A stretch of DNA of 39,695 nt from Patescibacteria group bacterium (GTDB lineage Bacteria; Patescibacteriota; Patescibacteriia; Patescibacteriales; UBA12075): contig JAKJDO010000006.1 in NCBI GenBank assembly GCA_022705905.1, positions 1 to 39,695 on the forward strand. Reading direction: 5' to 3'. The notes beneath the pieces are model-generated. The model did not search any database and was not told the origin of the DNA. It saw only the letters and a list, made by a program, of their open reading frames with translations. Made by a program: the position numbers and the translations under genes. Below, one piece after another: positions 1-15,819 of the stretch (its first letter is position 1; every line of letters starts with the position of its first letter).

Positions 1-3000
1 TTTATAGCCGAAGGAGCGACATTGACCATTCAACCCGGTGTAATCGTAAAGATAAAACAAACCAGCATGGTAGTGAACGGTAAAATAATAGCTCGGGGCA
101 GCACTGATAATCCAATAGTTTTTACCTCTATTAACGACGATTCTCAAGGAGGAATCGACGATCAATCGAATAATAATCCACAAGCTGGCGATTGGGGCGG
201 TTTTGAAATCAGAAAAAATGGTGAGTTAGTTTTTGACTATGTAATAGCAAGTTATGGCGGTTATAAATATGTTAGTATTGTTAAAGAAAGTAAGTTTATA
301 AAATATAATACGGCTTTAGCGGATATTTTTCCAATAGGAGTAATTAGCGCCAATGGCGGCAAAGTTGAAATTAGCAATTCAGAAATTTCTAACAATATTA
401 TTGGTTTGGAGTTCGGTGATTACTGGGTGGATGTAAATAATCAAATTTCCAGCCAGGTTTCAATTCATAATTCCAAAATATACGACAACGTGCAAAGCGG
501 AGTTATAAATAGCGGCGCCAGTCAAATTGATGCTACTAATAATTGGTGGGGCAGCAATTCGGGACCCTATAATTTAAGTTCCAATCCTAACGGGCAAGGC
601 AATGAAGTTAGTAATAATGTTTTATTCGATCCGTGGATAGGTAAAATATCCGAACCAAAACGCAATCCAGTAATTATTATTCCGGGCATTTTAGGCAGTT
701 ATTTAAGCGACCAAAGCGGAGAAGAAGTTTGGCCGAATTTAACCAGTACAGTTTTAGACCCTTGGGACATCCACCTTAATAAATTAGCGCTTCCAGAAGA
801 CGGGGTTCCTGCTGGTAATTCCGTGATGTATCCCAAAGATATTTTTAGGGAGATTTTGAGCAAGGATTTTTTCCAAGGATTAATTGAGGAGCTAGAGAAT
901 AACGGTTACAAGGAAAATAAAGATTTATTTGTTTTTCCTTATGATTGGCGCCGGGATTTAAATAGCACGGCTGGTGACGGCACTTACGAAGAAGTAAAAT
1001 CTTTAGATGAAAAAATAGAAGAAATAAAAGAGTTAACTGGCGCAAATAAAGTCGATATTATTGCTCATAGTATGGGCGGGTTAGTTTCAAAGTTGTATAT
1101 AAAGAAATATGGGGGAAATTCGATTGATAAATTTATTGATATAGGCACGCCTCATTTGGGCGCTCCAAAAGCTTTCAAGATTTTAGCTTATGGTGATGAT
1201 ATGAGTTTTAACTACCTGGGTATTGGTTTAAATTCACAAAGAATATATTCCATATCTCAAAACCTCCCGTCAGTTTATCAGCTTCTTCCTAGCAGAAAAT
1301 ATTTTGATAGCTCAAATCAGAATTACAAGAGTTATATTGTTGATATTTATGATTATGACAGTAATGGCGTAAAAAACAACTTGGATTACGATCAGTCAAT
1401 AGAATTTATGAAAAATACTGGTCGCAATAATTATTTATTAGGATTTAATGACGGCTTGCATAACAACATAGATGAATATTTTCCCGAACTAGATGGTATT
1501 AAGACTTATAATATTGTCGGGTGTAGCAAGCCAACCATTGGTAAAATTTACATTTTAAATAAAGAAAAATCTGGCGGTTATGAGTATGGCCTGCAGTATA
1601 TTAACGGGGATGGTACGGTACCATTGCGCAGCGCAGAATATCTAGATGCTGATAAAAAGTATTATACAAACAACGTAGAGCATGCTTATTTACCTAGCGC
1701 CGAGGGAGTTAAACAATTAATAGTTTCTATATTAAGTAATAATGAAGAAAATTTTGATTTAGATAATTATACGAACATAAGTTCAGATGATAGTATCTGT
1801 TCGTTGGCAGGCATTCAAATTGAATATCACAGCCCTATAGACCTGCACATTTATGACGCCGACGGTAATCACGTCGGACCGGATGCCAATGGTGATATCG
1901 ACAATAAAATTGAAGGCGCGCAATATGATATAATAGATGGTAATAAGTTCGTTTTTTTACCTTTTGGCAGTTTTTACAAAATTGAAGGCAGGGCTACTGA
2001 TATTGGCACCTTTGATGCGCACATAAAAATAATTGAAGACGGGGAGTGCATGAGATCAGTATATTTCAATGAGATTCCGTTATTGTCCACTTCTACTAAT
2101 ATTCAGATTTTGACCAATAGCCAAGAACCGGTTATGCAGATTGACCAAGATGGTGACGGGTTTTTTGAAAGTGAGCGTGAGCCGGACGCTTTTCTCGACG
2201 AAGAAGAAAGTCAAGACCTAGACAAACCAGAAACTGTTATAAATTTAAGCGGTAATCAAGGTGATGGCGGTTGGTATAAATCAAACGTTGAAGTGTCATT
2301 GAGCTCTCAAGACAATGAGGGCGGCGCCGGCATATTAAAAACGGAATATAGCCTGGATAATGGTCAAAATTGGATAATATATCAGCAACCATTTATTATT
2401 TTCCAAGAAGGCACCACCACAGTTTTTTATCAAGCCATTGATCGCACCGGGAATATCGAAATCACAAAAGAAGGTATTATAAAAATTGACGCGACACCGC
2501 CAACTGTAAATATTGTAGCTCCTTATAACGGTCAAGAATTTTTACAAAGCGATATTTTTTTTATAGATTATGAGGTCTTTGATAACAGCTCTGGGGTTGC
2601 TAATTTAAGTTTGAGTCTAGACGGTAACGCTCTTGCCCCATCTTCAATTAAATTGTCTAATTACAATCCAGGCGAGCACATCTTAAAGATTGAAGCAGTG
2701 GATTTTGCTGGCAACCGAAGCGAGGCGGAGCTAGAATTCAATATTATTGAAAGTGAAGCCAGCATAGACAAAATAATTGACGACATTGAGGGGCTGTATA
2801 TCAACGATGAAATTTATAAAAAAGCGGTAAAAGAGACTTTGATCAGAGAATTATTGCTTATTAAAAAATATGAAGAGAAATATGGAGAGAGGCAGGAAAA
2901 AAATAGCAAGCACAATGAGCAAGCATTTGATAAGTGTATAGAAAAAAAAGGACTGGAATGGTGCCAAAAATATTTGATTATAAATAAAGTAGTTTCATAT

Positions 3001-3153
3001 CATCTAAATAAAATTCACGAAAAAATTATCAGAAGCTATTATCAGGTTTTATTACATGAGCTAGATTTATTTTTTAAGAAAAAGTGGTTAAGCCAAAATG
3101 CTTATGATATAATAAGAAATGATATTACAGATTTAATTAATAATTTAAAATAA
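1..3153 (+). CDS. Secreted multidomain protein with LCAT/lipase-like hydrolase domain (5' partial)
   Basis: The frame is open from base 1, so the true start and any signal peptide lie outside the window. Numbering residues from the TTG at 22, residues about 1-210 are rich in N, G and I with short repeating strands, typical of a right-handed beta-helix. Residues about 215-570 look like an alpha/beta hydrolase of the lecithin:cholesterol acyltransferase group: a PGILGS strand/oxyanion-type motif, a nucleophile elbow HSMGG with Ser350, and likely Asp530 (GDGTVP) and His554 (NVEHAY). Residues about 740-905 contain an OmpL47/Ig-like segment (SLDNGQNW, YQAIDRTGN) and a second Ig-like domain beginning TPPTVNI. 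The C-terminal 130 residues are charged and helical, resembling FIMAH-type tails. Inference: an exported surface lipase or acyltransferase acting on host or environmental lipids. The substrate is unknown. Confidence 0.8.
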   Translation, partial: FIAEGATLTIQPGVIVKIKQTSMVVNGKIIARGSTDNPIVFTSINDDSQGGIDDQSNNNPQAGDWGGFEIRKNGELVFDYVIASYGGYKYVSIVKESKFIKYNTALADIFPIGVISANGGKVEISNSEISNNIIGLEFGDYWVDVNNQISSQVSIHNSKIYDNVQSGVINSGASQIDATNNWWGSNSGPYNLSSNPNGQGNEVSNNVLFDPWIGKISEPKRNPVIIIPGILGSYLSDQSGEEVWPNLTSTVLDPWDIHLNKLALPEDGVPAGNSVMYPKDIFREILSKDFFQGLIEELENNGYKENKDLFVFPYDWRRDLNSTAGDGTYEEVKSLDEKIEEIKELTGANKVDIIAHSMGGLVSKLYIKKYGGNSIDKFIDIGTPHLGAPKAFKILAYGDDMSFNYLGIGLNSQRIYSISQNLPSVYQLLPSRKYFDSSNQNYKSYIVDIYDYDSNGVKNNLDYDQSIEFMKNTGRNNYLLGFNDGLHNNIDEYFPELDGIKTYNIVGCSKPTIGKIYILNKEKSGGYEYGLQYINGDGTVPLRSAEYLDADKKYYTNNVEHAYLPSAEGVKQLIVSILSNNEENFDLDNYTNISSDDSICSLAGIQIEYHSPIDLHIYDADGNHVGPDANGDIDNKIEGAQYDIIDGNKFVFLPFGSFYKIEGRATDIGTFDAHIKIIEDGECMRSVYFNEIPLLSTSTNIQILTNSQEPVMQIDQDGDGFFESEREPDAFLDEEESQDLDKPETVINLSGNQGDGGWYKSNVEVSLSSQDNEGGAGILKTEYSLDNGQNWIIYQQPFIIFQEGTTTVFYQAIDRTGNIEITKEGIIKIDATPPTVNIVAPYNGQEFLQSDIFFIDYEVFDNSSGVANLSLSLDGNALAPSSIKLSNYNPGEHILKIEAVDFAGNRSEAELEFNIIESEASIDKIIDDIEGLYINDEIYKKAVKETLIRELLLIKKYEEKYGERQEKNSKHNEQAFDKCIEKKGLEWCQKYLIINKVVSYHLNKIHEKIIRSYYQVLLHELDLFFKKKWLSQNAYDIIRNDITDLINNLK

Positions 3154-3158
3154 AATTT

Positions 3159-3479
3159 ATGTTAACTTTGAACCAAAGAAGTAAATTATTTTTTTATCCA
3201 ATTTTGTATTGGATCATTTTTATTTTTTTTCCGATTGTCATCGCTTATATTTATCAAGATAACAGCTCTATAATAAATTTTTCCGGTATTTTAATGTTTT
3301 TTGTTATTTTTGTTGCACCATTTTTATATTTTATTCCTTATAAAACAATCATATTTGAGAATAAGAAGCAAAAGATACTTTTTGTTTTTTTAGGTTTGAT
3401 GTTGCCTTATCTTTTTTTGCTTGCATTTTTGAGTTATAAGATAGCAAATAATTTTAGCCGCTCTAATTTTCCGTTTTGA
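3159..3479 (+). CDS. Small hydrophobic membrane protein, function unknown
   Basis: This is a 106-residue, very AT-rich gene starting 5 bases after the preceding stop, so it is probably co-transcribed with the hydrolase gene. Three hydrophobic stretches (about residues 10-30, 40-60 and 72-95) separated by short polar loops suggest three transmembrane helices; the loop containing ENKKQK is basic and probably cytoplasmic. No family is recognised. Such small membrane proteins are common in reduced genomes and may partner the upstream secreted protein, but nothing in the sequence shows this. The low-complexity TTT-rich coding makes it less certain than its neighbours. Confidence 0.55.
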   Translation: MLTLNQRSKLFFYPILYWIIFIFFPIVIAYIYQDNSSIINFSGILMFFVIFVAPFLYFIPYKTIIFENKKQKILFVFLGLMLPYLFLLAFLSYKIANNFSRSNFPF

Positions 3480-3571: not shown

Positions 3572-3611
3572 ATTGTCTAAAGACAATAAAAATAAGAACG
3601 AGGAGGAGTCT

Positions 3612-4151
3612 ATGTCCATTGAAAAATTAGAACAAATCATCTTAGTGATAGCTTCTTTGCCTGAAATAAAAGGGACCTTTTTGGGCGATTTACTGCGCAC
3701 CATCGCCCAAAAGGATTTTTCTGAACCGTTATTTGAAACAGACGACCCAGTCGCTTATAATATTCAACCGATGAGCTTGTTGCAAAGGTGTTTGTATACT
3801 ATCCTTGAAAAATATGATAAGCGACTGACTATGTTTGAGGAAAAAATGGGAGATGACTGTAAAAACAATCTAGAATATCAGAAGATATCAGCGCGCGTAG
3901 CCCTAGCTGCTCAATGGTTGCAAGAAGACTTAGCCGAAATTATCTTGAATAACCCAGAAAAAGCTGGGCCAGAAGACGATGTAATTCTCGGCAAGTCGTT
4001 TCAAGTCGTTGGTATTCCGCACGACTCGAAGCTTTCCTTGGATTTATTCGGCGCCCATGAAGATGAAGATGATGAAAATGGGTTCGACGAAGAGATTGAG
4101 CCAGAGAATACGTTCCAAGGCATGGAGTGCAAAAATAAGTTGCCAGCCTAA
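3612..4151 (+). CDS. Hypothetical protein with acidic C-terminus
   Basis: No family is recognised. The ATG at 3612 is chosen because a near-perfect ribosome binding site (AGGAGGAG, 3601-3608) lies just upstream; a TTG in frame at 3573 is less likely because it sits in the terminator tail. The 179-residue product is soluble and helical (residues about 1-120, with repeated amphipathic patterns around LLQRCLYTILEKYDK and AQWLQEDLAEIIL), then becomes very acidic (about residues 143-165, DEDDEN). The gene pairs with the next one (18-base gap, also with a strong ribosome binding site), and both sit between two terminators, so they form a two-gene unit. The strong Shine-Dalgarno sites differ from most genes here, which suggests high expression or separate origin. 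Confidence 0.7.
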   Translation: MSIEKLEQIILVIASLPEIKGTFLGDLLRTIAQKDFSEPLFETDDPVAYNIQPMSLLQRCLYTILEKYDKRLTMFEEKMGDDCKNNLEYQKISARVALAAQWLQEDLAEIILNNPEKAGPEDDVILGKSFQVVGIPHDSKLSLDLFGAHEDEDDENGFDEEIEPENTFQGMECKNKLPA

Positions 4152-4169: not shown

Positions 4170-4610
4170 ATGGATCCGCTACTTTTCTATTTACTTCAGT
4201 TTCTTCAGTATGCAGTGTTTTTCATCATTGCTTTCTTTTTTATTATTGCCAACAACGCGTTCAAAAAACCCGGCTTCAACATAAAGGAGTCGGATGAAAA
4301 CCAGATCTATATTGCTTGGCATACGAAATTGCCCGGATTCGTACAGGAATATTTGCCAAAGGACGAAGTCAACCTTGGAGACCTGTTGTCCAAAGGATTT
4401 CTTAAATCAGCGGATAATAGGTTTGAAGATACAATAAATCCCGAGGTAAGGGTGGCTAGGATTTTGCAGGCGGATGGTCTTTGCCGCGATTACAGATTGA
4501 CTGAAAGGGATGGTCATCATTTTTTGTACCGTCCCGGAAAAGTCCACTGGCGATTTTCCTGGCGCGCGGAATACAGGATCGGACCTTGGAAAAAGATTAA
4601 ATCCAAGTAA
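4170..4610 (+). CDS. Hypothetical single-pass membrane protein
   Basis: A 146-residue protein of unknown family. The start at 4170 follows a clear AAAGGAGT ribosome binding site (about 4155-4162). Residues about 4-30 form one strongly hydrophobic helix (LLQFLQYAVFFIIAFFFII). The remaining 115 residues are soluble, with several Trp and Arg residues towards the C-terminus (HWRFSWRAEYRIGPW), suggesting a small beta-rich domain. Part of the gene (around 4441-4500) is about half G+C by hand count, higher than its surroundings. It is the second gene of a bicistronic unit with the acidic protein upstream and is followed by a terminator. Co-function with that partner is inferred only from arrangement. 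Confidence 0.7.
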   Translation: MDPLLFYLLQFLQYAVFFIIAFFFIIANNAFKKPGFNIKESDENQIYIAWHTKLPGFVQEYLPKDEVNLGDLLSKGFLKSADNRFEDTINPEVRVARILQADGLCRDYRLTERDGHHFLYRPGKVHWRFSWRAEYRIGPWKKIKSK

Positions 4611-7232: not shown

Positions 7233-8303
7233 ATGCTTAAAAGAAAAAAAATATTATTATTTTTAGCTGCGCTGGCAGTTTTACTGCTTGCCTCCGGCTG
7301 TACTGTTATTACCTCCAGCAGTCAAAGCACAGTCAACAATATCGGCGGTATTTTCGCGTCAAATGACAAGGGCGATACTTGGAAGTCAAAATCATTAATC
7401 GCCACAGTCAGCGGCTCGGCTAAATCATTTTCCGGTTTAGATGTTTATTCTTTGACTATGGATCCGAGCGACAGCAAGGCCGTTTATTTCGGCAGCGTTG
7501 GCAGCGGTCTTTTTTATACCTATAATGGCGCTGAGTCTTGGCAGCTAGCCGCCGGCTTGGGTAATGTTTCCATCAGGTCTATCGCCATTGATCCTTTAAA
7601 TAAGTGTAATATTTATTTGGCTGTTGCTAATAAAGTAATGTATTCAAAAGATTGCAATCGTTCCTGGTCTCAAGTTTATGTCGACGAGCCGACAGTTACG
7701 GTGGATGCCATCGCAATTGATCATTATAACAGTTCCACAATTTATATAGGCGTTTCTCGCGGTGATTTAATAAAAAGCGAAGACAAAGGCGAGGGGTGGC
7801 AGACTATTTACCGCGCCAAAGATAAAATTAGAAAAATCGCCGTTGATCCGAATGACAGCCGCGTCATTTATTTAGCTACTGAAAAGAAGGGAGTTTTTTA
7901 CACAAAAGATCGCGGACAGAATTGGTCTGACTTAAATAAGGCTTTAAATGAAAAAAAATTAGGTCTTGATGTGAGAGACATAGCCATGGTTAAAAAAGAA
8001 CCAGGCACAGTATTTTTAGCCACCACTTACGGAATTTTAAAATCAAAAAATGGGGGTGAAACGTGGGATAGTATTGAGTTAATTCCGCCGGAAAGCAAGG
8101 CGTCAATAAATGCTATGGCTGTCAATTTGAACAACAGCCAGGAAATTTACTATGTCACTAACACTACTTTTTACCGATCGGTAGACGGTGGTGCCAGTTG
8201 GAAACCGTTAAAACTGCCGACCGGTCGCGCCGGCGCCAAATTACTGCTCGATCCGCAGAATGCCAATGTAGTTTATCTGGGCGTAAAAACAATTGCTAAA
8301 TAA
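7233..8303 (+). CDS. Lipoprotein with BNR/Asp-box beta-propeller (sortilin/Ycf48-like)
   Basis: Residues 1-22 are a lipoprotein signal peptide (MLKRKK, then a hydrophobic core) with a lipobox ending ASG before Cys23, so the mature protein should be lipid-anchored on the outer face of the membrane. The rest consists of repeated propeller blades marked by Asp-box motifs: SNDKGDTW, SEDKGEGW, TKDRGQNW, SKNGGETW and SVDGGASW, plus a diverged one (SKDCNRSW). The repeats of IAIDP/VDPNDS..IYL match the sortilin/BNR and Ycf48-like fold. Known relatives include glycosidase-like and assembly-factor propellers; no catalytic residues are evident here. It lies between holB and frr, 9 bases after holB. Its role is unknown, perhaps binding of surface glycan or protein. 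Confidence 0.85.
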   Translation: MLKRKKILLFLAALAVLLLASGCTVITSSSQSTVNNIGGIFASNDKGDTWKSKSLIATVSGSAKSFSGLDVYSLTMDPSDSKAVYFGSVGSGLFYTYNGAESWQLAAGLGNVSIRSIAIDPLNKCNIYLAVANKVMYSKDCNRSWSQVYVDEPTVTVDAIAIDHYNSSTIYIGVSRGDLIKSEDKGEGWQTIYRAKDKIRKIAVDPNDSRVIYLATEKKGVFYTKDRGQNWSDLNKALNEKKLGLDVRDIAMVKKEPGTVFLATTYGILKSKNGGETWDSIELIPPESKASINAMAVNLNNSQEIYYVTNTTFYRSVDGGASWKPLKLPTGRAGAKLLLDPQNANVVYLGVKTIAK

Positions 8304-13743: not shown

Positions 13744-15819
13744 ATGAAAACGACTTTCATGGATAAATTTTCTAGAGGCACTCAAGGGAAAATGCGTTTA
13801 TTTTTAGCGGGAATTATTATTTTGGTAATTGCTTGTGGGCTTATTGTCGCTGGCAAGCAATATAACAAAGGAATCGGCTGGTTGTCTGATAAAACTGGTA
13901 ATTCAATTAATTTACCAAAGATGTGGGAGTCTCCCTTTCGTTTAGGTTTGGATTTATCCGGGGGGACGCAATTAATGTACAAAGCTGATATGTCAAACAT
14001 TCCAACAGCAGATAGGTCGGTGGCAGCTGAAGGCGCGCGAGATGTTATTGAAAGACGCGTCAATGTTTTTGGTATCAGCGAACCAGTAGTGCAGACTAGC
14101 GTTTCGGGCGGGGAGTATAAAATTATCGTCGAATTAGCAGGTATTAAAAATGTCGATGAGGCTATAAAAATGATTGGTGAAACACCCCTTCTAGAATTTA
14201 AAGAACAAGCAGACGCTTCAAGAAGTTTAACTACCGATGAACAAACTAAAATCGATTCTTATAATAAAGAGGCAGAGAAAAAGGCTGAAGATGTTTTGGG
14301 AAAATTATTATCAGGCGGTGATTTTGCCGCCTTAGCCAAGCAATATACTGAAGAGGATGGCGCTAAGGAAAAATCAGGCGATTTAGGTTGGATTGTAGAA
14401 AGTGACAATCCAGAAGTTGTTAGCTTCGTTAAAAATTTAAAATCAGGAGAGTTTACTAAAGATTTAATAAAAGCCGCTGACAGTTTTCAAATTTTAAAAT
14501 TAAATGGCCTAAGGCAAAAAACAGATGCTTTTACTAAAGAGGCTGAGAATGAAGTCAGGGCAGCTCATTTATTAATTTGCTACCAGGGATCTGAAGGCTG
14601 TAGCAGTGATTTAAGTAAAGAAGATGCTTTTAAAAAAATTAGCGAACTTAAAGCCAAAGCCACGCCTATTAATTTTACTCAATTGGCAAAGGACAATTCT
14701 ACCGAGCCGGGAGCTAAAGACACTGGCGGCGAATTAGGTTGGTTTAAAAAATCAGATATGGTTTCTAAATTTGCCGAAGCTGCTTTTGTGCAGAAGGTAG
14801 GAACTATATCTGACGCCGTGGAAACAGAATTCGGCTACCACTTAATTTGGAAACAGGACCAAAGAGCAATTACCGAATATAATATTAGCCGTATTATTTT
14901 TGGTAAAATGACTGCAGCTAACTTAGCTGGCGGCCAAGAAAATTGGAAAAACACCGAATTGACAGGAAAAAATTTAAAAGGAGCCAGTGTTCAATTTAAT
15001 CCCAATAGCAGCTACCCGGAAGTAAGCCTTAGTTTTGACAATGAGGGCGCCAAGATGTTCGAAGAAATTACTGGCAGGAATATCGGCAAGCCAGTGGCTA
15101 TATTTCTTGACGGTTACGCCATTAGCACCCCAACTGTTAATGAAAAAATTACTGGTGGCCAAGCCGTTATTTCTGGCAAATTTAATGTTGAAGAAGCAAA
15201 ATTATTAGCTCAACGTTTAAACGCCGGTGCCTTGCCGGTGCCGATTGAATTGATAAACCAGACAACGGTTGGCGCTACCTTAGGTCACGATTATTTAATG
15301 GCTAGTTTGAAGGCAGGTTTGTTTGGATTTTTGTTAGTAGCATTATTTATGATTTTTTATTATCGTTTTCCCGGTGTTTTGGCAGTTGTCGCCTTGTTGA
15401 TTTATAGCGTTTTAGTCCTGGCTATTTTTAAAGTGTGGCCAGTAACTTTAACTTTATCTGGCATTGCTGGCTTTATACTTTCTATTGGCATGGCGGTTGA
15501 TGCTAATATTTTGATATTCGAGCGGTTAAAAGAAGAGCTGGGAGAAGGGAAAAACTTAGCTATGGCAGTTAACAATTCTTTTATGCGAGCTTGGCCTTCA
15601 ATTAGAGATAGCAATTTTACTACCTTAATAACTTGTTTTATATTGGCTGAATTTACCACAGGGGTTGTTAAGGGGTTTGCCATTACATTGGGTTTGGGAG
15701 TTCTAGTCTCTATGTTTACCGCTATAGTTATTACTAAAACTTTTATGCAGTTATTCGTCGGTCAATGGTTGGAAAAAAGATTGTGGCTAATTCGCATTAA
15801 AAACAAGAAAGTGAGTTAA
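13744..15819 (+). CDS. secD: Sec translocon subunit SecD with inserted tandem parvulin-like domains
   Basis: Proton-driven accessory of SecYEG that pulls exported proteins on the outer face. The first helix is at about residues 18-36, then the P1 start (PFRLGLDLSGGTQL; RRVNVFGISEPVVQ). At about residue 155 the P1 region is interrupted by roughly 240 residues and resumes at about 400 (VQFNPNSSYPEVSLSFDNEGAKMF). The insert holds two PpiC/parvulin-like units: a degenerate one (about 165-265; GGDFAALAKQYTEEDGA, GDLGWI) and a complete-looking one (270-372; VRAAHLLI, FTQLAKDNSTEPGAKDTGGELGWF, FGYHLIW). The C-terminus has the SecD membrane block with GMAVDANILIFERLKEE. Length is 691 residues; the excess over compact SecDs is the insert. 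secF follows by 19 bases. Confidence 0.95.
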   Translation: MKTTFMDKFSRGTQGKMRLFLAGIIILVIACGLIVAGKQYNKGIGWLSDKTGNSINLPKMWESPFRLGLDLSGGTQLMYKADMSNIPTADRSVAAEGARDVIERRVNVFGISEPVVQTSVSGGEYKIIVELAGIKNVDEAIKMIGETPLLEFKEQADASRSLTTDEQTKIDSYNKEAEKKAEDVLGKLLSGGDFAALAKQYTEEDGAKEKSGDLGWIVESDNPEVVSFVKNLKSGEFTKDLIKAADSFQILKLNGLRQKTDAFTKEAENEVRAAHLLICYQGSEGCSSDLSKEDAFKKISELKAKATPINFTQLAKDNSTEPGAKDTGGELGWFKKSDMVSKFAEAAFVQKVGTISDAVETEFGYHLIWKQDQRAITEYNISRIIFGKMTAANLAGGQENWKNTELTGKNLKGASVQFNPNSSYPEVSLSFDNEGAKMFEEITGRNIGKPVAIFLDGYAISTPTVNEKITGGQAVISGKFNVEEAKLLAQRLNAGALPVPIELINQTTVGATLGHDYLMASLKAGLFGFLLVALFMIFYYRFPGVLAVVALLIYSVLVLAIFKVWPVTLTLSGIAGFILSIGMAVDANILIFERLKEELGEGKNLAMAVNNSFMRAWPSIRDSNFTTLITCFILAEFTTGVVKGFAITLGLGVLVSMFTAIVITKTFMQLFVGQWLEKRLWLIRIKNKKVS

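What the first reader, a model, noticed from the sequence alone, without database searches (positions are those of the whole stretch)
1..3153. Beta-helix plus LCAT-type hydrolase plus Ig-like secreted protein
An intact-looking Ser350-Asp530-His554 set sits in a large exported architecture. Host-dependent CPR cells are thought to scavenge lipids; an extracellular acyltransferase or lipase with adhesive domains could serve this.
Basis: partly seen in the sequence, partly recalled or inferred. Interest (0 to 1): 0.6.

Follow-up and report, generated by a model that had tools for sequence, protein, structure and literature searches.

The report
Exported lipase with membrane-protein partner gene
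A tiny, probably host-dependent bacterium makes a large exported enzyme of the fat-cutting LCAT family, and the gene is nearly always paired with a small membrane protein that may protect the producer, which suggests how such cells could attack or harvest the membranes of their neighbours.

Summary
Window 1-3153 is a 1050-aa frame cut at its 5' end by the contig start. The triad is invariant in relatives (Ser 22/22, Asp/His 21/21 where present; phylum-wide 40/40, 39/39). The export signal is lost at the contig edge, but 21 of 22 relatives with a complete 5' end have one. The genome lacks ketoacyl-synthase, PlsY and PlsC families, which fits lipid scavenging. Across 286 genomes, however, carrying LCAT does not track lack of ketoacyl-synthase.

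Five bases downstream lies a 106-aa, about 3-TM protein with no Pfam family. A small multi-TM ORF directly follows the hydrolase in 27 of 30 near loci (25 of 28 without two found through the partner), against 3 of 128 other large ORFs. Partners belong to unrelated families, come in tandem, and in some genomes alternate with orphan hydrolase C-termini, as in toxin-immunity loci. Best reading: an exported phospholipase A-type enzyme with a dedicated membrane partner, most likely self-protection. Activity and substrate are untested.

The parts
1..3153 (+). Exported LCAT-type hydrolase gene, 5' end cut off by the contig start (about 45-80 residues missing, judged from relatives)
   Evidence: in L056 window residue 8 aligns with residue 52, in L057 residue 2 with 66, in L058 residue 1 with 81
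1..639 (+). Probable right-handed beta-helix segment ending in a conserved NNWWG motif
   Evidence: Pfam Beta_helix 0.0075, sub-threshold; NNWW invariant in the 4 proteins of alignment A2
664..1770 (+). LCAT-type alpha/beta-hydrolase core (residues about 222-590)
   Evidence: Pfam LCAT 1.8e-26; profile to LPLA2 and LCAT structures 3.9e-20 and 2.7e-19
1069..1071 (+). Codon of the nucleophile Ser357 (AHSMGG)
1609..1611 (+). Codon of the acid Asp537 (GDGTVP)
1681..1683 (+). Codon of the base His561
2275..2481 (+). OmpL47-type domain
   Evidence: NCBIfam NF047446, 1.9e-22, residues 759-827
2500..2643 (+). Ig-like domain (Big_7)
   Evidence: Pfam residues 834-881, 0.00018 in the whole protein, 9.5e-6 and over its cut-off when scanned alone
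2740..3150 (+). Helical C-terminal domain, FIMAH-like in relatives
   Evidence: no Pfam match in the window copy; 11 of 19 aligned C-termini match FIMAH at E<=1, best 8.2e-8
3159..3479 (+). Small about 3-TM membrane protein, partner family f1, starting 5 bases after the hydrolase stop
   Evidence: no Pfam family

Best explanation
The gene pair encodes (1) a Sec-exported, multidomain lipid acyl hydrolase of the LCAT / lysosomal phospholipase A2 type and (2) a small polytopic membrane protein dedicated to it. Shown by sequence: the hydrolase family, the invariant triad, export signals in relatives, and the tight, recurrent two-gene linkage. Inferred: the enzyme is displayed on or released from the cell by its beta-helix, Ig-like and helical domains and removes acyl chains (phospholipase A, possibly transacylase) from membrane lipids of neighbouring or host cells, yielding lysolipids and fatty acids that this cell probably cannot make. 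Inferred with less certainty: the membrane partner sits in the producer's own membrane and protects it from the enzyme, as immunity proteins do; its fast turnover, tandem copies and occurrence with orphan hydrolase C-termini fit such a role.
For: LCAT match and near full-length profile match to human LCAT and LPLA2 structures. Triad invariant in near relatives and in 40 (Ser) and 39 (Asp, His) of the 40 strongest phylum matches, the missing one being cut by its contig. Export signals in 21 of 22 and 35 of 37 complete 5' ends against 24 of 780 internal windows. No ketoacyl-synthase, PlsC or PlsY match in the genome, while the controls ring in 14, 10 and 8 of 14. Partner directly downstream in 27 of 30 against 3 of 128. 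Partner families f1 and f2 without similarity to each other; tandem partners; array hydrolase-partner-orphan C-terminus-partner-orphan C-terminus-partner in L185, and orphan C-termini with partners in L061, L062 and L166. Orphan partner genes without a hydrolase (L184, L186). The best bacterial structure match of the profile is 4r1d_A, 3e-14, an entry titled Tle4-Tli4 complex, which is a phospholipase effector with its immunity protein.
Against: No activity or substrate is known; LCAT-family sequence does not separate phospholipase, acyltransferase and other ester hydrolases. LCAT presence does not track lack of ketoacyl-synthase in the phylum (p 0.29). C-terminus type and partner family agree in 25 of 25 clear cases, but the hydrolase tree splits the same way, so this is not independent evidence except for the two orphans. 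Outside the near relatives the partner is downstream in 10 of 36 and on the upstream side in 11 of 37 loci, the latter only moderately above background (11 of 123). The exchanged C-terminal piece is no known toxin domain. The match to Tle4 is local (about 100 residues around the nucleophile).
Confidence: 0.45

Rival explanations
1. The partner is a membrane docking site or anchor: the helical C-terminal domain binds it and so holds the exported enzyme on the cell surface, where it helps adhesion and lipid uptake; there is no antagonism.
For: The C-terminal domain and the partner are neighbours in the genes, in several loci overlapping by 4 bases, and C-terminus type agrees with partner family in 25 of 25 clear cases, including two orphan pairs without a hydrolase.
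Against: An anchor need not come in tandem, in unrelated families, or survive alone; phylum relatives with other C-termini also have a partner.
Confidence: 0.27
2. The partner is a folding or export helper specific to the lipase, comparable in role to the membrane-anchored lipase foldases of Pseudomonas and Burkholderia.
For: Secreted lipases with a dedicated membrane helper in the next gene are known (recalled; the structure search lists such lipase-foldase complexes as weak matches).
Against: The partners are about 90-140 aa and strongly hydrophobic with little outside the membrane; 19 of 40 phylum loci show no partner on either side (some lack room).
Confidence: 0.13
3. A purely nutritional or self-directed lipase: it trims scavenged or own phospholipids to lysolipids, for uptake or for curvature of a very small cell; the partner is a transporter-like or regulatory protein.
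For: CPR-rich fractions were reported rich in lysolipids and phospholipase A was named as a possible source (PMC7242380, passages); the genome lacks ketoacyl-synthase, PlsC and PlsY families.
Against: Rapidly changing, tandem and orphan partners are unusual for a transporter; LCAT carriage does not track loss of ketoacyl-synthase.
Confidence: 0.15

Closest known systems
LCAT / lysosomal phospholipase A2 (PLA2G15) family, Pfam PF02450
   Same: Catalytic core nearly end to end, Ser-Asp-His triad, YDWR, AHSxG and GDGTV motifs.
   Different: Bacterial, embedded between a beta-helix and Ig-like/helical domains, about 1100 aa, with a membrane partner gene; activity unknown.
T6SS phospholipase effector Tle4 with immunity protein Tli4 (PDB 4r1d)
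   Same: Alpha/beta-hydrolase related by profile around the nucleophile (3e-14); an inhibitor gene partner.
   Different: Local match only; the proteins here carry Sec-type signals, and the partner is an integral membrane protein. T6SS genes were not looked for.
Contact-dependent and polymorphic toxin systems with orphan C-terminus/immunity cassettes (CdiA, MafB, Rhs; recalled)
   Same: Long exported protein, small downstream partner, orphan C-terminal pieces alternating with partner genes.
   Different: The enzyme lies in the middle and is conserved; the exchanged C-terminal piece is not a recognised toxin.
Secreted phospholipase of Vampirococcus lugosii, a CPR bacterium (PMC8080830, passage)
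   Same: Proposed use of a secreted phospholipase to disrupt host membranes and obtain lipids.
   Different: The passage names no LCAT family and no partner gene.
FIMAH domain (PF22888) and OmpL47-type domains
   Same: C-terminal helical domain of relatives matches FIMAH; the window has an OmpL47-type domain.
   Different: The window's own C-terminal domain does not reach FIMAH.

Membership tests
LCAT family (PF02450) | Score above the curated cut-off | tested here: met
   93.7 bits against 21; 22 of 22 near (window included) and 40 of 40 phylum proteins match at E<=0.01
LCAT family (PF02450) | Ser-Asp-His triad in family positions | tested here: met
   profile alignment covers human LCAT 17-397 and shows the Asp and His segments of LCAT
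LCAT family (PF02450) | Lid and membrane-binding subdomain, correct active-site geometry | tested here: inconclusive
   Models too poor (pLDDT 40.5 and 48.1); Foldseek gives only low TM matches to lipases
LCAT family (PF02450) | Phospholipase or acyltransferase activity | not testable with these tools
   No assay
Toxin-immunity (polymorphic toxin-like) pair | Exported effector with cognate gene directly downstream | tested here: met
   27 of 30 near loci against 3 of 128 background ORFs; export signals in relatives
Toxin-immunity (polymorphic toxin-like) pair | Orphan C-terminus plus immunity cassettes behind the main gene | tested here: met
   Seen in relatives L185, L061, L062, L166; not in the window itself
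Toxin-immunity (polymorphic toxin-like) pair | Variable C-terminal toxin domain | tested here: not met
   The enzyme is central and conserved; the C-terminus is FIMAH-like or a short tail
Toxin-immunity (polymorphic toxin-like) pair | Partner neutralises toxicity | not testable with these tools
   Needs co-expression
T6SS Tle effectors | T6SS delivery | not tested
   No search for T6SS genes was made; export signals of relatives point to Sec
FIMAH domain (PF22888) | Profile match of the window copy | tested here: not met
   0 families at E<=10 for window 2740-3150; relatives 11 of 19 at E<=1
Host-lipid scavenging enzyme of CPR | Genome unable to make fatty acids and glycerolipids | tested here: met
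   No match for ketoacyl-synt, Acyltransferase (PlsC) and G3P_acyltransf (PlsY); other steps of the pathways were not searched
Host-lipid scavenging enzyme of CPR | Carriage tracks loss of fatty-acid synthesis | tested here: not met
   7 of 54 against 19 of 232, p 0.29

The most novel reading that the evidence does not exclude
Patescibacteria carry a widespread, previously undescribed antagonism-and-feeding system: a Sec-exported LCAT-type phospholipase that strips host or rival membranes, paired with fast-evolving small integral-membrane immunity proteins and renewed by exchange of C-terminus/immunity cassettes. It would be a lipid-directed relative of polymorphic toxins that at the same time supplies lysolipids to cells that cannot make lipids.
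Probability: 0.35. Interest if true: 0.8.

Novelty: new variant of a known kind. Interest (0 to 1): 0.6.

Why it matters
[quoted passage not shown] Here is a concrete candidate gene family, found in 54 of 286 genomes of the phylum, with an intact catalytic triad and a partner gene that makes a clear prediction: toxicity of the enzyme relieved by the partner. Both can be tested in laboratory E. coli without culturing the organism.

Tried and rejected
Rejected: (a) chance frame - excluded by relatives of 43-54% identity over most of the protein and profile matches. (b) A giant gene: an apparent 24,990-aa open frame around one relative is a run of unread bases, not a protein. (d) Defence system: only a weak LmuA match (0.0041) through the hydrolase fold, none for the partner. 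(e) C-terminus/partner agreement as proof of exchange: the hydrolase tree splits the same way, so only the orphan pairs count. (f) Deeper alignment from viral contigs: 10 relatives, mostly short matches; two further scans gave two contigs already seen or nothing. (g) LCAT tied to loss of fatty-acid synthesis: not supported.

Rows dropped: the 19 loci leave out L024 (not tested), L059 and L074 (hydrolase frame runs off the contig end), L063 (neighbourhood unreadable) and L071 (hit only in its repeat part). One search adds L153, L155, L157, L158, L160-L164, L185 and L187, and leaves out L154, L156 (fragments) and L159 (no room). L185 and L187 were found through the partner and are biased; without them the count is 25 of 28. 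The 40 phylum loci are the 40 strongest non-own matches (34 genomes).

Papers: for PMC7242380, PMC11665869, PMC8080830, PMC12455944, PMC9530719, PMC11452946 and PMC12419801 I saw search passages only; all others only in search listings. That an LCAT-partner pair in Patescibacteria is not in print rests on listings in an open-licence library only.

Full report
1. The observation. The frame 1-3153(+) is open over 1050 residues and runs off the 5' end. The window is the whole of contig C11 (39,695 bases) of a 949,608-base genome estimated 99.2% complete, so the missing N-terminus is an assembly edge. Pfam finds LCAT (1.8e-26, 93.7 bits against a cut-off of 21), weaker alpha/beta-hydrolase relatives and Big_7; NCBIfam finds an OmpL47-type domain (1.9e-22). 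The beta-helix is only sub-threshold in the window. It is the only LCAT gene found in this genome.

2. Is the catalytic set real? In 22 relatives the serine is kept 22 times and Asp and His 21 times, the exception (L024) ending before them. In the 40 strongest phylum matches outside this genome, Ser is kept in 40 and Asp and His in 39; the exception (L132) runs off its contig. A profile of the family aligns with human LPLA2 (3.9e-20) and LCAT (2.7e-19), covering the oxyanion, YDWR, AHSxG and GDGTV stretches; a profile of the wider set covers LCAT 17-397 (6.2e-24). Geometry could not be tested: the two models are poor.

3. Export. The window's own N-terminus is missing. Of 22 near relatives with a closed 5' end, 21 have a strong hydrophobic segment near the N-terminus, as have 35 of 37 phylum proteins; internal windows of the phylum proteins pass the same threshold in 24 of 780 draws. 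Examples are L056 and L070.

4. Distribution. A match to the protein is found in 27 of 59 close genomes, own included; the LCAT family in 54 of 286 genomes of the phylum, 49 above the cut-off, against 2 of 14 control genomes, 1 above it. Copies of one genome (G062, G025, G048, G050) fall in different parts of the hydrolase tree, so the gene is multi-copy and probably moves between lineages (inference).

5. Lipid economy. Ketoacyl-synthase (0; control 14 of 14), PlsC-type acyltransferase (0; control 10 of 14) and PlsY (0; control 8 of 14) have no match in this genome. This supports dependence on foreign lipids. But in the same 286 genomes 7 of 54 LCAT carriers and 19 of 232 non-carriers have a ketoacyl-synthase match, no difference in the direction expected. 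So LCAT is not simply the substitute for lost lipid synthesis.

6. The partner gene. Five bases after the hydrolase stop begins a 106-aa ORF, 3159-3479, with about three membrane helices and no Pfam family. Homologues follow the hydrolase in relatives. Asking only for a small hydrophobic ORF directly downstream, 18 of 19 near loci have it against 3 of 132 other large ORFs of the same loci and of the phylum loci; with 11 more loci, 27 of 30 against 3 of 128 (Fisher p 8e-24). Two of the 11 (L185, L187) were found through the partner itself; without them it is 25 of 28. Among the 40 phylum loci it is downstream in 10 of 36 and upstream in 11 of 37, never both (background 3 of 128 and 11 of 123), so the association is strong near this genome and partial further out.

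7. The partners look like fast-evolving protective genes. They were sorted into six sequence families; the two largest do not match each other by profile and match nothing clear in Pfam. Tandem partners occur in L058, L060, L065, L066 and L069. Profile f1 has 27 matches in 16 of 111 order genomes, 23 of them by my reading next to a hydrolase or C-terminal piece (one at 1.3 kb), 4 not: two orphans (G012, next to integrase-like ORFs; G080, beside a ribosomal gene), one broken, one weak. Profile f2 has 28 matches in 15 genomes, 19 linked by comparison with the coordinates; of the other 9, whose surroundings I did not fetch, 7 hold stops.

8. Cassette-like arrays. In L185 the order is hydrolase, partner, orphan C-terminal piece, partner, orphan C-terminal piece, partner, the pieces aligning with the end of the hydrolase protein. 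In L061 and L062 FIMAH-type C-terminal pieces alternate with small membrane ORFs behind the main gene. C-terminus type and partner family agree in 9 of 9 (CT1-f1) and 16 of 16 (CT2-f2) clear cases; four strong CT1 frames have no assigned partner right behind them (three orphans followed by unassigned small membrane ORFs or none, and L159 at a contig end), and frames with weak C-terminus scores were not counted. Most of this follows the hydrolase tree; only the two orphan pairs (L062, L166) show it apart from the hydrolase. This layout recalls CdiA, MafB and Rhs loci (recalled). It differs in that the enzyme is central and the exchanged piece is a helical domain or a short tail.

9. How it most likely works. 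An exported LCAT-type acyl hydrolase acts on membrane lipids of neighbouring cells, and a membrane partner shields the producer. The profile's best bacterial structure match is 4r1d_A (3e-14 and 8.6e-13), titled Tle4-Tli4 complex, a phospholipase effector with its inhibitor; the match is local. Steps shown: family, triad, export signals in relatives, linkage. Steps inferred: substrate, target cell, protection. The chief rival is a docking role of the partner for the helical C-terminal domain.

10. Literature. Uptake of host lipids and lysolipids by CPR bacteria, and secreted phospholipases, have been proposed (PMC7242380, PMC8080830, PMC12455944; passages). [quoted passage not shown] Listings of the searches named in Tried and rejected showed no paper on an LCAT-type pair there; the library holds open-licence papers only.

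11. Verdict. Observation confirmed; interpretation partly supported; the new element is the partner gene. Novelty: new variant of a known kind.

Noticed in passing
window 13744-15819 (+): SecD with parvulin-type PPIase domains (Rotamase_3, 2.2e-34) lying between the two parts of its P1 domain, a SecD-chaperone fusion.
   Followed up: no
window 7233-8303 (+): Beta-propeller protein with sortilin/YCF48-like BNR repeats and a match to an F510_1955 glycosylhydrolase model below its cut-off.
   Followed up: no
window 3573-4151 and 4170-4610 (+): Two ORFs with no Pfam match; no homologues in the loci compared.
   Followed up: partly
L130, L131, L133, L134, L138, L147: In one group of phylum relatives a roughly 100-aa membrane ORF with a shared start overlaps the beginning of the LCAT gene on its upstream side.
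   Followed up: no
L135, directly downstream of the LCAT frame ending at 2067: A 174-aa membrane ORF that by eye looks like a PAP2-type lipid phosphatase (not searched).
   Followed up: no
L186:3424-3750 and L023:3407-6061: An orphan partner gene lies shortly before a ribosomal L10-like ORF; in L023 the hydrolase itself lies before such an ORF, with no partner within 100 bases. Possibly a partner kept after loss of the hydrolase (ORF identity by eye).
   Followed up: partly
L168:97-4941: A 1614-aa protein on an IMG/VR contig that joins propeller-like repeats to an LCAT-type domain.
   Followed up: no
L061:5402-7505 and L062:5744-7360: Direct repeats of the C-terminal coding region at 60-93% DNA identity behind the hydrolase gene, some copies broken.
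   Followed up: partly
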